From contig CAMZDW010000010.1 of the NCBI GenBank assembly GCA_947305555.1, forward strand, positions 1 to 34,585: a DNA stretch of 34,585 bases. The letters are read 5' to 3'. The stretch comes from an uncultured Elusimicrobium sp. Its GTDB lineage: Bacteria > Elusimicrobiota > Elusimicrobia > Elusimicrobiales > Elusimicrobiaceae. The notes beneath the pieces were generated by a model. It was given only the letters and a program-made list of their open reading frames with translations. It searched no databases and was not told where the DNA came from. Shown here piece by piece: positions 4,590-10,091 of the stretch; the stretch's first letter is position 1; every line of letters begins with the position of its first letter. The position numbers were made by a program, and so were the translations under genes.

Positions 4590-5167
4590 TCGTCATCTAA
4601 ATCAATAACGTCCGTCGTGGAGAAAACGGCTTCCATCATAGTTTCCATTTGTTCAGCTTGGATAACCCGGGCAGCACGGCTCGACAAGGTGCCATCTTGA
4701 TCTGCTTTTAGAAATGCGAAAATACTTAATAGATCTGTGCAGTCATCCACTTTTACTTTGGAGGCCGGAACCTCAGTCTGATTTTTAATAATATTGGACG
4801 CTAATTCTTTCAATACCGGCGTAATTTCTGCATTGATTTCATCACTGGAGTTTTTAATTTTATTAAAAATGGCAGGGATGGTTGTATTTAATGCTTTATC
4901 AATAGCTTTGTCAGTTTCATTCAGGTTACCTGCGTTCAGATGGTCATCGTAATTAATCAATCCTCCCTTGAGCGCTTTTATTACGTCTAACGCTTGCTGT
5001 TTCATTTCACTTTCTTGTTGAGATTGAGTCTCTATACTGGTTATTTGCTGTTCCATCCCACCAAAAAAGAGATCAATAAGACCTCGTAATTCGGATGTAT
5101 TACCGGCAAATGCCATGTTCGTAAGGGTTACTGCGACTAGGGCTAACAACCATCTCTTCATTTTCAT
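4574..5167 (-). CDS. Small secreted alpha-helical protein of unknown function
   Basis: 197 aa. I do not recognise the family. The start at 5167 follows a strong AGGAGG; a second ATG at 5161 (MKRWLL) lies 10 nt from that site and is also possible. Residues 1-21 form a signal peptide ([21 protein letters not shown]), so export to the periplasm is likely. The mature part is predicted helical and rich in Gln, Glu, Lys, Asn and Asp, with a single cysteine in [11 protein letters not shown]. It is transcribed divergently from clpP and convergent with the metallopeptidase gene, so it is a single-gene unit. Confidence 0.75.
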
Positions 5168-5293
5168 AATTCCTCCTAGAAATTTTACTTCTACAAGTAT
5201 TCTAAGCAATTTTTACCAAAAGAACATGAGCCTTTGGACCTATTTCAAAGCAATAAAAAGACCTAGAAATTTGCTAGGCCTTCCGCCAAAAAT

Positions 5294-5309
5294 ATACTAC
5301 AATATATAC
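5294..5309 (+). promoter_or_regulatory. Promoter -10 region giving a near-leaderless clpP mRNA
   Basis: TACAAT at 5298-5303 ends 6 nt before the clpP ATG. An alternative -10, TATACT (5294-5299), has TTGCTA 17 nt upstream (5271-5276). No Shine-Dalgarno sequence precedes the ATG. Either reading gives a leader of at most about 4 nt. Confidence 0.55.
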
Positions 5310-5897
5310 ATGATTATACCTACAATTATTGAAAAAAACGTTGGTTATGATATTTTTTCCCGTCTGCTGAAGGATCGTATTATCTTCGTGGGCGGCCGCG
5401 AGGGCGAGGTAGATACGGCCAGTGCCAATATGATTATCGCTCAGCTCTTGTATTTGGATGCGGATGATCCTACCCGGGAAATTAACCTCTATATCAATTC
5501 CCCCGGTGGAATGGTCACAGCCGGGCTGGCTATTTACGATACAATGCAATTTATTAAGGCTCCAATCACCACCATTTGTATGGGGCAAGCAATGAGCTTT
5601 GGCGCGGTGTTACTGGCCGCTGGTTCGAAGGGAAAACGCTATGCTTTGCCGCATGCGCGCATTATGATTCACCAGCCCTTAATTTGGGGCGGCGGTATTT
5701 CCGGCCAGGTGACGGATATTGAAATTGAGGCAAAAGAATTGCGTGATAACAAAGAACATCTCTTGGATATTTTAGCCAAACATACCGGCCAAGATAAGGA
5801 AAAAATCCGCCAGGATAGTGAGCGTAATTACTATATGTCCGCACAAGAAGCCAAGGCGTATGGGTTGATTGACGAAGTTTTAGAACTCAAGAAATAA
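5310..5897 (+). CDS. clpP: ATP-dependent Clp protease proteolytic subunit, Asn in place of catalytic Asp
   Basis: 195 aa, the usual ClpP length, beginning [10 protein letters not shown]. ClpP forms a tetradecameric chamber that degrades proteins fed by ClpX/ClpA-type ATPases in the cytoplasm. Visible motifs are the conserved [15 protein letters not shown] with nucleophile Ser96 (usual AASMG changed to AMSFG) and MIHQP with His121. Where the catalytic Asp of the E. coli triad lies (TERDRF), this protein has SERNYY, Asn173 (AAT, 5826-5828). A three-residue longer loop (IWGGGISGQ) precedes it. Listeria ClpP1 has a similar Asn, so a second-paralogue role is plausible. The gene is isolated: neither clpX nor tig is adjacent. 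The start was set from the N-terminus and promoter, since an upstream extension of 65 codons is non-homologous. Confidence 0.95.
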
Positions 5898-5949: not shown

Positions 5950-7383
5950 CTATAGGGCGTAGAAAGAGGCTGACCTTTCTATGTTAGGTTGCGTAAGTGC
6001 GGTTTGCAGAAGCGAGTTGTCTACGGGAGAAGAATAATTTTCTCTCTCCAAGCGGTTTAGAAAATCATTCCATCGGTTCAGTTCTTCTACGGACACTTTG
6101 GAGGCAACCTGATGTGTTTTTAACTCATCAATTGCAGCATTATCTATCGAGAATCCGGCGATACACGGATCTCCGTAGGGGACTTGAGTGATATTTGAGT
6201 ATTCTTTTTGAGAATAAGAATTATAACAGTGGTAACTCAGTATAGGCTTTGCAAGAGCAGTAGCCAAACGCTGGCTAGCGGACTTTACTGCCGGAGCTGC
6301 ATTGGTTGCTTTGGAAATATCTCGCAGTAAATGTAACATGGCAAACCCAGGCAAGCCTTTTGCAAACGTACTGGTAGGCAAGTTAAATCTTCCGCCTTGG
6401 GTAGCTAAAGGCAACCAATTCTCCAACATGGGAGCAACTTGTTGCCGATAAATATCACCATCTACCACCATCACATTATGTACAACTTTCTTGCCGGGAT
6501 AATACTTAGCCAGTGCCGTTTGCAAAGCAGCTTCTTTGGGGGATTGTCCCAAATTTTTAATTAGGGCCAACGGCCCGGTGGAAAATCCAATTCTTTCCCC
6601 ATCAATTTCCCTGGTTTTTGTATTGTCCGACGCGGAGAAATTGGAAGATGTGATAAGGTACTTCACATCGCTGCCAGTTAGTAGGTGATGGATGTTGGCC
6701 ATGGTGGCCATATAACAGGAAGATAAATCCAGTAAATCCACTTTTAAGTGATTGGCTTTGAGTGCATTAACGAGATGAAAAATAGTAATGTACGGTTTGT
6801 TATCCGTTGTTTTCATCGCTATTTTCATGTGGTGTCCGCTTCCGTGGGCTTTAAACAAAATAGCTGTCTGAAGTCGAGGAGATGCTTGTAACTGTTTCAT
6901 CAACCGGTTTAATACTTCCTGCGCAGACAATTTACTTACATCAACTTGTTTGTATGAATATTTTGGCTCGTCGGAAGGATTATACCCTTTTTCCTTGATT
7001 TGGGGTTTGGCTTGAAAAATATTTAAAAAGGAAGAACCATCTTGACGGGAATAAAACAAGATAGCCTTTTCTACATGATGGGCTTTAAATTGTTTAACCA
7101 ATTCTTCCCGGGTATCGTCTACGGCACCCCATTTTTCCAAATTTCCGGTATTGAGAAAAATAAGCACTTGCCATTTTTTATCAAACGTAGAGGCAGGAAG
7201 AATGTTTTCCAGAGAAGATTGTAGCTGGGCCGGTGAAGAATGTAGGGAGCTTGACTGATTGGTTTTGGCATTGTGCAAAAATTCCAGCAGGCGGCTTCCA
7301 TCCATGTTTGCCGACGGACGTTGTTGCGCCTGGGAATATACACTCATCAAGCCAAATAATAAACCTATCAATAATTTTTTCAT
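5950..7383 (-). CDS. Secreted clostripain-like cysteine peptidase (family C11)
   Basis: 477 aa. ATG 7383 follows GAGGA by about 6 nt and opens a signal peptide (MKKLLIGLLFGLMSVYSQAQ); the upstream in-frame extension covers promoter sequence and was dropped. C11 peptidases use a His-Cys dyad: His180 in FKAHGSGHH and Cys223 in DLSSCYMAT fit, the Cys being preceded by a hydrophobic strand (KVDLLDLSS) as in the family. The protein is likely exported and, by family knowledge, would cleave after Arg or Lys, though the specificity pocket cannot be read here. No neighbour suggests a pathway. It has its own promoter with near-consensus boxes and shares a terminator with clpP. Confidence 0.85.
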   Translation of the reverse strand: MKKLLIGLLFGLMSVYSQAQQRPSANMDGSRLLEFLHNAKTNQSSSLHSSPAQLQSSLENILPASTFDKKWQVLIFLNTGNLEKWGAVDDTREELVKQFKAHHVEKAILFYSRQDGSSFLNIFQAKPQIKEKGYNPSDEPKYSYKQVDVSKLSAQEVLNRLMKQLQASPRLQTAILFKAHGSGHHMKIAMKTTDNKPYITIFHLVNALKANHLKVDLLDLSSCYMATMANIHHLLTGSDVKYLITSSNFSASDNTKTREIDGERIGFSTGPLALIKNLGQSPKEAALQTALAKYYPGKKVVHNVMVVDGDIYRQQVAPMLENWLPLATQGGRFNLPTSTFAKGLPGFAMLHLLRDISKATNAAPAVKSASQRLATALAKPILSYHCYNSYSQKEYSNITQVPYGDPCIAGFSIDNAAIDELKTHQVASKVSVEELNRWNDFLNRLERENYSSPVDNSLLQTALTQPNIERSASFYAL

Positions 7384-7443: not shown

Positions 7444-7475
7444 GTTCTCCGTCGGCATTGATAATATAATTAAAA

Positions 7476-7502
7476 TTAGCAAACAAATTTATTATTTGCT
7501 AA
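7476..7502. promoter_or_regulatory. CIRCE-like inverted repeat overlapping the lon -35 box (putative HrcA operator)
   Basis: TTAGCAAAC, 9 nt, ATTTGCTAA. The geometry (9-9-9) and the outer TTAGCA/TGCTAA half-sites match the HrcA operator consensus TTAGCACTC-N9-GAGTGCTAA; 13 of 18 positions agree. The arms extend to a perfect 12-bp inverted repeat (7472-7483 with 7495-7506). The right arm contains the -35 box of lon, the placement expected of a repressor site. Confidence 0.6.
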
Positions 7503-7524
7503 TTTTGAAATAATTTGCTACAAT
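7496..7524 (+). promoter_or_regulatory. lon promoter with extended -10
   Basis: TTGCTA (7496-7501), 17-nt spacer, TGC-TACAAT (7516-7524). The predicted start of transcription near 7531 gives a leader of about 60 nt ending in the GGGGGAG ribosome site (7579-7585). Confidence 0.8.
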
Positions 7525-7589
7525 TTCTCTTGTAACGCGTAGATTTTGATTTTTACGCACAGTTTTGAGTACATATATGGGGGAGTTTT

Positions 7590-10091
7590 ATGATGGAAGA
7601 AACAAAAAAATTGACACTTTCTTTGCCTACGGTTGTTCCAGCCGTGGCTATTCGGGATGTGGTGATGTTTCCGGGGATGAATTTACCTCTGTCGGTAGAC
7701 CGTCCCAAATCTATTGCGGCGGTGGAACTAGCTTTAAATACGCCTGAGAAGTATATTTTAGCCGTTTCTCAAAAAAATGCGGAAATTGATGACCCGCACG
7801 AGCAGGACATTTATCATTTCGGTGTGATTGCTCAAATTACGCAAAATCTGAAAATGCCCGATGGCTCTATGAAAATTTTCTTGCAAGGGCTCGTGCGAGC
7901 GCGTGTGCATAAATTGGAGGTCAACAACGTGGCCGGCTCGTGGTTTGCCTCGGTGGAGTATATTGAGGAAGAAGATGATAATTCCCCGGTTGTGCAAGCG
8001 CTCATGCGTAAGGTATTGGATGAATTTGACCATTATGCCCGTGTTTCGCATCGAATTGCAGTGGAGGGGGTTTCCTTCTTGCGGCAAATTAATGATGCTT
8101 CTAAGCTGGCCGATACGGTTGCTTCCAATATGTTAGTTAAGACCCCGCAACGGCAAGAAATTTTGGAAGCGGTACATATTAAAGATCGTTTGGAAAAAAT
8201 CTTAAAATTGATTACCAGCGAAGTGGAAATTTTGGGATTGGAAGAAAAAATTCATTCTAAAGTCCGCGCACAAATTGAGAAAAATCAAAAGGAATATTAT
8301 CTAAATGAGCAAATGAAGGCCATCCAGAAAGAGCTCAGCCAAAAGGATGATTTCCAAAAGGAAATCGACGATATGCGCGGCAAAATTAAGAAGAATGGGT
8401 TGCCGCCGCACGCCAAAGAAGCGGCCGAAAAAGAGTTGGACCGGTTGGCTAAAATGGCACCTTTTTCACCGGAAGCGACGGTTTCACGCACCTATTTGGA
8501 TTGGCTACTCAATATGCCGTGGAACAAAACGACCCAAGATGTGTTAGATTTGAAAAAAGCACGCGAAATTTTGGACGAAGATCATTTTGGCCTGAATAAA
8601 CCCAAAGAACGCGTGTTGGAATATTTAGCGGTCAATAAGCTGACTAATAGCTTGCGTGGACCCGTGTTGTGTTTTGCCGGTGCGCCGGGCGTAGGGAAAA
8701 CGTCCCTTGCCAAATCCATTGCACGCGCTATTGGACGCAAGTTTGTGCGGATGTCTTTGGGTGGAGTACGGGATGAAAGCGAAATTCGCGGTCACCGCCG
8801 TACTTATATCGGTTCTATGCCGGGCCGTATCATCCAGGGCCTAAGCAAAGCCAAAAGTGCCAATCCGGTATTTTTATTAGACGAAATAGACAAAATGGGG
8901 TCGGACTGGCGTGGTGACCCGGCGGCTGCTTTGCTGGAATTATTAGACCCGGAGCAGAATAAAGAATTTACCGATCACTTTTTAGATGTTCCGTTTGATG
9001 TTTCTAAAGTGATGTTTATTACGACGGCTAACTCACTTGCCGGGATTCCGTCTACGTTGCGAGACCGGTTGGAAATCATTGATTTCGACGGATACACCGA
9101 ATACGAAAAGCACGATATCGCTGCACAGTATTTACTTCCCCGACAAATGAAGATGCATGGTATTAAAGAGGGACAATTGGTAGTAGAAAAGGAGGCGGTT
9201 TCTTTGCTAATGCGCGACTATGTGCGCGAAGCCGGCGTGCGTAATTTAGACCGGGAAATCGGCTCTCTATGCCGCAAAGCCGCTAAGATGTTGGTGGAAG
9301 GAAAAAAGAAAATTGTGGTAACGCGTGAGAATTTACATGATTTTTTGGGCGTTCCGCGTTATGCTAATTTCGCTACCGAAGAAAACGGTGTAGGGATCGC
9401 CACCGGGCTTGCCTGGACCAGCGTGGGAGGTGAAACATTATCCATCGAAGCCACCAAATTGCCGGGTAAGGGTAATTTAATATTAACCGGGATGTTGGGA
9501 AATGTGATGAAAGAGTCCGTCCGCGCGGCGCTCACCTATGCGCGTAGCCGTGGTTATGGTAAGAAAATAGATTTTGACAAAACGGATTTTCATATCCACT
9601 TCCCGGAGGGGGCGGTACCGAAGGATGGACCGTCTGCCGGGAGTGTGATTACTACTGCACTGACCAGTTTGCTCCTGGGTCTTCCGGTAAAAAAACAACT
9701 GGCTATGACGGGAGAAGTAACCATCACCGGTCGCATATTACCGGTGGGGGGAATTAAGGAAAAGTTTTTGGCGGCGTACCGAGAAGGAGTTAAAACAATT
9801 CTTTATCCGCATACTAATGCCAAAGACGTAGCAGAAATCCCGGAACGTGTCCGTAAAGAGCTGACACTGATTCCCGTAAAACATATGGATGAAGTGTTAC
9901 CCTTAGCGTTGGAAGGTTGGAAAGAATTTGCCGGGAAAGAACACAAAAAATCAACCGGCAAAAAAGCGTCTCGCGCAACCAACACGAAGAAAAAGAGAAC
10001 GGTTGTTAAAAAAACCGCGAAAAAAACTTCTGTAAAAAAAGCCAAACAAACGACTCAAAAAAAATCGGTTAAGCACAAAAAAAGACATTAA
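7590..10091 (+). CDS. lon: ATP-dependent Lon protease with lysine-rich C-terminal tail
   Basis: 833 aa, about 50 longer than usual. Lon degrades misfolded and regulatory proteins in the cytoplasm as a hexamer. Domains in order: LAN N-terminal domain (about 18-210), coiled segment, AAA+ module with Walker A GAPGVGKT (364-371) and Walker B VFLLDEIDKM, and protease domain with Ser682 in KDGPSAG and Lys725, 43 residues on as in other Lon enzymes. The excess length is the tail from about residue 780, dominated by Lys, Thr and Ser with motifs such as KKTAKKTSVKKAK, resembling histone H1-like or AlgP-type tails. ATG 7590 was taken; ATG 7593 is better spaced (7 nt) from GGGGGAG and also possible. A CIRCE-like repeat at the promoter suggests heat-shock control. 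Confidence 0.97.
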   Translation: MMEETKKLTLSLPTVVPAVAIRDVVMFPGMNLPLSVDRPKSIAAVELALNTPEKYILAVSQKNAEIDDPHEQDIYHFGVIAQITQNLKMPDGSMKIFLQGLVRARVHKLEVNNVAGSWFASVEYIEEEDDNSPVVQALMRKVLDEFDHYARVSHRIAVEGVSFLRQINDASKLADTVASNMLVKTPQRQEILEAVHIKDRLEKILKLITSEVEILGLEEKIHSKVRAQIEKNQKEYYLNEQMKAIQKELSQKDDFQKEIDDMRGKIKKNGLPPHAKEAAEKELDRLAKMAPFSPEATVSRTYLDWLLNMPWNKTTQDVLDLKKAREILDEDHFGLNKPKERVLEYLAVNKLTNSLRGPVLCFAGAPGVGKTSLAKSIARAIGRKFVRMSLGGVRDESEIRGHRRTYIGSMPGRIIQGLSKAKSANPVFLLDEIDKMGSDWRGDPAAALLELLDPEQNKEFTDHFLDVPFDVSKVMFITTANSLAGIPSTLRDRLEIIDFDGYTEYEKHDIAAQYLLPRQMKMHGIKEGQLVVEKEAVSLLMRDYVREAGVRNLDREIGSLCRKAAKMLVEGKKKIVVTRENLHDFLGVPRYANFATEENGVGIATGLAWTSVGGETLSIEATKLPGKGNLILTGMLGNVMKESVRAALTYARSRGYGKKIDFDKTDFHIHFPEGAVPKDGPSAGSVITTALTSLLLGLPVKKQLAMTGEVTITGRILPVGGIKEKFLAAYREGVKTILYPHTNAKDVAEIPERVRKELTLIPVKHMDEVLPLALEGWKEFAGKEHKKSTGKKASRATNTKKKRTVVKKTAKKTSVKKAKQTTQKKSVKHKKRH

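What the first reader, a model, noticed from the sequence alone, without database searches (positions are those of the whole stretch)
7472..7524. CIRCE-like operator over the lon promoter
TTAGCAAAC-N9-ATTTGCTAA has the exact 9-9-9 geometry of the HrcA operator and its conserved outer halves, in a perfect 12-bp inverted repeat, and the right arm contains the lon -35 box. HrcA control of lon in this lineage would be a specific, testable heat-shock circuit.
Basis: partly seen in the sequence, partly recalled or inferred. Interest (0 to 1): 0.55.

Follow-up and report, generated by a model that had tools for sequence, protein, structure and literature searches.

The report
Heat-shock operator fused to lon promoter
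In a family of gut bacteria (Elusimicrobium relatives), the gene for the quality-control protease Lon carries the same kind of repressor-binding site as the heat-shock chaperone genes, built into its promoter, so the protease and the chaperones are probably switched on together by heat.

Summary
The element is real: TTAGCAAAC-N9-ATTTGCTAA at 7476-7502, inside a perfect 12-bp inverted repeat (7472-7483/7495-7506), its right arm holding the lon -35. On its inner bases alone it is weak: 5 of 18 consensus positions differ, and about 4 sites as good by a matrix are expected per genome. Comparison decides it. The genome has one hrcA. Exact TTAGCA-N15-TGCTAA occurs three times in it: before hrcA, groES and lon. 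The lon site is kept in 61 of 61 same-genus genomes with upstream DNA (60 exact), amid unconserved sequence; in 17 its left half is canonical TTAGCACTC. It occurs in 13 of 18 other family genomes and 0 of 42 more distant ones, where lon mostly lies close behind clpP. Unexpectedly, hrcA and groES promoters carry a second upstream operator whose right half is the -35 itself (TTAGCAnTC-N9-GGTTGACAA), in the same register as lon. So the lon site is most likely an HrcA operator of a -35-embedded variety. HrcA-lon control is known in Mollicutes; the phylum and the -35-embedded design appear new. HrcA binding is untested.

The parts
7476..7502 (+). HrcA-type operator of lon (9-9-9: TTAGCAAAC-N9-ATTTGCTAA)
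   Evidence: exact outer arms; conserved in 61 of 61 genus genomes with upstream DNA (60 exact, 1 with one mismatch)
7472..7506 (.). full perfect dyad, 12-bp arms AAAATTAGCAAA / TTTGCTAATTTT
   Evidence: in the genus AAAA precedes the site in 48 of 61 and TTTT follows it in 60 of 61
7496..7501 (+). -35 hexamer TTGCTA of lon, inside the right half of the operator
   Evidence: TTGCTA at this register in 61 of 61 genus genomes
7519..7524 (+). -10 hexamer TACAAT of lon (17-bp spacer, TG before it)
   Evidence: TACAAT/TATACT/TAAAAT in 38/18/5 of 61
7579..7585 (+). likely ribosome-binding site GGGGGAG
   Evidence: sequence; inference
7590..10091 (+). lon, ATP-dependent protease La (833 aa)
   Evidence: LON_substr_bdg, AAA, Lon_lid, Lon_C
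5115..5897 (+). clpP; the gene directly before lon in the order and class outside this group
   Evidence: named by sequence, start codon uncertain
5950..7383 (-). divergent secreted-looking protein between clpP and lon; probably not part of the circuit
   Evidence: own - strand promoter-like site 7443-7415

Best explanation
The element is the HrcA operator of lon. HrcA, sitting on the dyad at 7476-7502, covers the -35 (7496-7501) and keeps RNA polymerase off the lon promoter. On protein-folding stress HrcA loses activity (by the known GroE-titration or thermosensor routes) and lon is made together with hrcA-grpE and groES. The operator is of a -35-embedded kind: TTAGCAnnC, a 9-bp spacer, then a right half that is also the -35 region. 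At hrcA and groES the -35 is consensus TTGACA and the right half is poor, and a second better operator lies 47-51 bp downstream over the -10/+1. At lon the right half keeps TGCTAA, the -35 is weaker (TTGCTA) and there is no second operator, so repression should be milder. Shown: sequence, conservation, register, hrcA presence. Inferred: HrcA binding, repression, heat induction, relative strength.
For: One hrcA in the genome, 173.6 bits. Exact TTAGCA-N15-TGCTAA three times in 1.36 Mb: hrcA, groES, lon. In 66 genus genomes the Y/R form occurs mostly 3 times per genome; the reversed-pattern control is 0 in 64 of 66. lon site in 61 of 61 with upstream DNA, arms near 2 bits per column against mostly under 0.3 bit upstream; 47 distinct operator sequences. 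Left half canonical TTAGCACTC in 17 of 61. Same-register -35-embedded operator at hrcA 29 of 29 and groES 29 of 29. The pattern YTAGCANNC-N11-TTG has 155 matches in 594,529 bases of held genus loci, all at these three promoters; eight altered controls give 0-11. Sister-genus hrcA operators use GTTTGCTAA and TTAGCAAAT halves. The operator stays although the -10 sits closer to it in the sister genus.
Against: The lon site of this genome has 5 of 18 mismatches to consensus and scores 11.4 where hrcA/groES sites score about 24-28; about 4 such sites per genome are expected by chance. In Mollicutes, sites with more than two mutations were judged non-functional (PMC5138195 passages). A second sigma-70-family gene of unknown role exists (below the RpoH cut-off in 66 of 66), so lon may have other control. 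No binding or expression data.
Confidence: 0.88

Rival explanations
1. The dyad is bound by another, lon-specific repressor whose site resembles CIRCE in its outer arms only.
For: Right inner triplet at lon is never GAG, left inner triplet is mostly not CTC (44 of 61), and an extended AAAA...TTTT dyad is mostly kept.
Against: The arms occur at hrcA, groES and lon and hardly elsewhere; 17 of 61 lon sites have TTAGCACTC; hrcA and groES share the same -35 register; sister hrcA operators use the same halves. CtsR is absent in 65 of 66.
Confidence: 0.07
2. Only the promoter (-35, -10) is conserved and the upstream arm is a relic or chance.
For: The right arm overlaps the -35; the site is weak by matrix.
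Against: The left arm, outside the promoter, is fixed (A3 G4 C5 A6 in 61 of 61) while the 40 bp upstream are unconserved; in sister genera the arms persist with the -10 at another distance.
Confidence: 0.03
3. The inverted repeat acts as an RNA or DNA hairpin: a terminator or a 5' leader element.
For: Perfect 12-bp arms with an 11-base loop followed by T's.
Against: It lies upstream of the predicted lon start point; no terminator-like site and no Rfam match; the inner positions vary without keeping pairing, as TTAGCACTC faces ACTTGCTAA in several species.
Confidence: 0.02

Closest known systems
CIRCE/HrcA (TTAGCACTC-N9-GAGTGCTAA; consensus as printed in PMC545781 and PMC3842655, passages read)
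   Same: 9-9-9 geometry, exact outer TTAGCA/TGCTAA, repressor gene present, hrcA-grpE and groES carry it too
   Different: inner triplets differ (AAC/ATT); right half doubles as the -35; target is lon
HrcA control of lon in Mollicutes (Spiroplasma melliferum, Mycoplasma pneumoniae; PMC5138195, PMC7737663, passages read)
   Same: lon preceded by an HrcA site
   Different: other phylum; in M. pneumoniae lon is also read from the trigger factor promoter; no -35-embedded half is described in the passages seen
Paired CIRCE before one operon (Lactobacillus plantarum hrcA, PMC3842655; S. melliferum dnaK and clpB, PMC5138195; passages read)
   Same: two operators at one promoter, as at hrcA and groES here
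   Different: here the upstream one is fused to the -35 in a fixed register, and lon has that one alone
sigma-32 control of lon in delta-proteobacteria (PMC545781, passages read)
   Same: lon as a heat-shock gene, often behind clpP
   Different: no RpoH above cut-off here; repressor operator instead

Membership tests
CIRCE operator (HrcA) | 9-bp halves separated by exactly 9 bp | tested here: met
   7476-7502
CIRCE operator (HrcA) | outer TTAGCA ... TGCTAA | tested here: met
   exact here; 60 of 61 exact in the genus in the Y/R form
CIRCE operator (HrcA) | inner CTC ... GAG (full consensus) | tested here: not met
   AAC ... ATT, 5 of 18 mismatches; this genome's groES and hrcA sites have 2 and 3; left CTC in 17 of 61 lon sites. 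Hence filed as a variant, not as canonical CIRCE
CIRCE operator (HrcA) | hrcA gene in the genome | tested here: met
   65 of 66 in the genus; C-terminal domain 172.4 bits, DNA-binding domain 20.6 against cut-off 21
CIRCE operator (HrcA) | same element at groES and the hrcA/dnaK operon | tested here: met
   30 of 30 hrcA and 30 of 30 groES loci examined
CIRCE operator (HrcA) | lies over or next to the promoter of a stress gene | tested here: met
   overlaps the lon -35
CIRCE operator (HrcA) | bound by HrcA and relieved by heat | not testable with these tools
   needs gel-shift and expression data
CtsR operator (considered) | ctsR gene present | tested here: not met
   1 of 66 genus genomes, not this one

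The most novel reading that the evidence does not exclude
In this family HrcA reads a two-part operator code: an upstream operator whose right half is the -35 hexamer itself (O1), with or without a second operator over the -10/+1 (O2). lon, once read from clpP, gained its own promoter with O1 alone and became a mildly repressed member of the HrcA regulon, with a built-in trade-off between promoter strength and operator strength.
Probability: 0.6. Interest if true: 0.55.

Novelty: new variant of a known kind. Interest (0 to 1): 0.45.

Why it matters
It predicts the chaperone/protease heat-shock circuit of a little-studied gut lineage that shows no RpoH above the curated cut-off and almost no CtsR. 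It shows an HrcA regulon taking over lon outside the Mollicutes, apparently as lon parted from clpP. The -35-embedded operator gives a simple testable rule for how strongly each target is repressed, and would be missed by scans for the canonical CIRCE.

Tried and rejected
A strict matrix from hrcA/groES operators did not by itself support the lon site. A 3-mismatch CIRCE search of the genome finds only groES and hrcA, not lon. Other sites with one mismatch in the outer arms (3 besides lon, hrcA and groES; reversed control 2) were taken as noise and not followed. Extra exact-arm sites in some family genomes lie by other genes (G075: some way before a ParB/methylase-type gene; third site of G095: by genes unrelated to heat shock) and were taken as chance. 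RNA element: no Rfam match. The idea that the lon right half has T instead of G only because of the -35 was weakened, since sister genera keep TTTGCTAA although their -10 lies only some 7-8 bp behind it.

Dropped before counts: of 66 genus genomes, 3 had no lon match (G028, G040, G054) and 2 had the contig end too close (G008, G027), leaving 61. hrcA and groES operators were read in 30 loci each, of 65 and 61 genomes with a match; one of each (L101, L158) had too little upstream for O1. Outside the genus, 18 family, 22 order, 11 class and 9 phylum upstreams were taken, out of the 232 genomes with a match. The 155 matches include repeats of the same lon loci and 10 antisense readings of the palindrome. 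The list was cut after G026; its tallies cover all 66.

Full report
What is there. The window is contig 10 of a 1.36-Mb, 60-contig genome. Nearest named lon relatives are bins labelled uncultured Elusimicrobium, several from rumen. Between a divergent gene (5950-7383, -) and lon (7590-10091, +; Lon domains) lies AAAATTAGCAAAC-AAATTTATT-ATTTGCTAATTTT; the 27-bp core is 7476-7502 and the arms are perfect over 12 bp. TTGCTA (7496-7501) and TACAAT (7519-7524), 17 bp apart, form the likely lon promoter.

Is it more than chance? With a matrix trained only on hrcA and groES operators of the genus the site scores 11.4; it is the best of the window but the next scores 11.2, and 4.4 such sites per genome are expected in random sequence. 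Taken alone, the inner bases therefore do not identify it. The exact outer arms do better: TTAGCA-N15-TGCTAA occurs three times in the genome, 33 bp before the hrcA start codon, before groES, and before lon.

Conservation. Among 66 genomes of the genus, the Y/R form of the arms occurs mostly three times per genome, and the reversed control is absent from 64 of 66. Before lon it is present in 61 of 61 genomes with upstream DNA (60 exact, G015 with one mismatch). Column information is 2 bits at most arm positions and mostly below 0.3 bit in the 40 bp upstream. Left inner triplets are CTC 17, GAC 16, ATC 11, AAC 8, others 9; the third base is C in 60 of 61. The right half always ends its inner triplet with T and reads TTGCTA, with a -10 (TACAAT 38, TATACT 18, TAAAAT 5) at 17 bp. 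The 87 sense-strand copies held comprise 47 different operator sequences.

Range. They are absent in 22 genomes of the sister family in the order, 11 of the class and 9 of the phylum. In g5, g6, the sister family (22 of 22) and 9 of the 11 class genomes, clpP lies just upstream of lon (gap -19 to 197 bp by extrapolation), as in the clpP-clpX-lon operons listed for delta-proteobacteria. In g2, g3 and g4 clpP was not seen in the fetched upstream (at most about 700 bp; under 200 bp for G216); in the genus, where clpP was seen in 19 of 30 loci checked, the gap is 161-932 bp. So the operator goes with lon having its own promoter. This is a correlation, not a dated event.

The regulator. hrcA is present once here and found in 65 of 66 genus genomes; the protein matches PDB 1STZ, named an HrcA homologue, at 2.9e-28. 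The C-terminal domain is clear; the DNA-binding domain scores 20.6 bits against a cut-off of 21. CtsR is absent from 65 of 66 (the one, in G065, may be a contaminant). No sigma factor passes the RpoH cut-off in 66 of 66, though a second sigma-70-family gene exists.

An unlooked-for feature. The hrcA and groES promoters each carry, besides the operator over the -10/+1 (O2), a second one upstream (O1): TTAGCA[G/A/C]TC-N9-GGTTGACAA at hrcA (29 of 29; one begins CTAGCA and one has TATTGACAA) and TTAGCA[C/A/G]TC-N9-GGTTGACAA at groES (29 of 29). Its right half is the -35 TTGACA itself, and TTAGCA starts exactly 20 bp before the -35, as at lon. O1 and O2 are 50-51 bp apart at hrcA and 47-48 bp at groES. 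In this genome these are C11:30161 with 30211, and C13:15908 with 15860 on the minus strand. YTAGCANNC-N11-TTG has 155 matches in 594,529 bases of held genus loci, both strands, all at these three promoters; eight altered controls give 0-11. A fixed-place match has probability about 1e-4 by base composition, so the agreement of hrcA and groES with lon is hardly chance. Sister-genus groES promoters have the same design, TTAGCAnTC-N9-GATTGACAA in 13 of 13 (g2) and the like with GTTTGACAA in 2 of 2 (g3), not in g5 or g6. Sister-genus hrcA operators include TTAGCAGTC-N9-GTTTGCTAA (G068, G072, G107) and TTAGCAAAT-N9-GAGTGCTAA (G256): the lon-type half serving hrcA itself.

How it probably works. 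HrcA on the lon dyad blocks the -35. At hrcA and groES the -35 is optimal and O1's right half is poor, but O2 adds a second hold; at lon the right half keeps TGCTAA, the -35 is suboptimal and no O2 is seen among the sites starting at 7491-7600 (best 10 of 18). I infer a weaker promoter with milder repression, relieved on heat as chaperone demand inactivates HrcA. Geometry and conservation are shown; binding, repression and induction are inferred.

Against. The site departs from consensus more than sites judged functional in Mollicutes (at most two mutations; PMC5138195), and lon sites score below hrcA/groES sites. Sister genera keep TTTGCTAA although there the -10 follows some 7-8 bp behind it and the -35 must lie elsewhere, so the -35 overlap cannot be the whole reason for the inner bases. 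Two of 13 g2 genomes lack the lon site.

Known or new. HrcA control of lon is in print for Mollicutes (PMC5138195 and PMC7737663, passages), and paired CIRCE for L. plantarum hrcA (PMC3842655, passages). A search for papers holding Elusimicrob and HrcA listed four, none on this by title. Searches for two CIRCE and for CIRCE with -35 terms (listings only) showed no -35-embedded operator by title or abstract start; most subscription papers are not held. I call it a new variant of a known kind.

Noticed in passing
G000 C11:30161-30237 and C13:15834-15908 (L240, L241): hrcA and groES promoters each carry two operators, the upstream one using the -35 TTGACA as its right half, 50 and 48 bp apart here.
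   Followed up: yes
5950-7383 (-): 477-aa secreted-looking protein between clpP and lon with HGSGHH and SSCYMA motifs (clan CD cysteine peptidase-like, from recall); no Pfam match at E<=0.001, only Rimk_N at 0.19.
   Followed up: partly
27-2800: Five successive ORFs, several opening with pilin/pseudopilin-like GFTLLE-type motifs (motif from recall).
   Followed up: no
G000 C2:62203-62991: Second sigma-70-family gene (153 bits to RpoH, below cut-off) present across the genus; its promoters and role are unknown.
   Followed up: no
G065 C28:435-644: CtsR-like gene in one genus genome, absent from the other 65; perhaps contamination.
   Followed up: no
G015 C49:3858-4759: lon match broken into two pieces with an in-frame TAA in this genome; its operator has the only outer-arm mismatch of the 61.
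   Followed up: no
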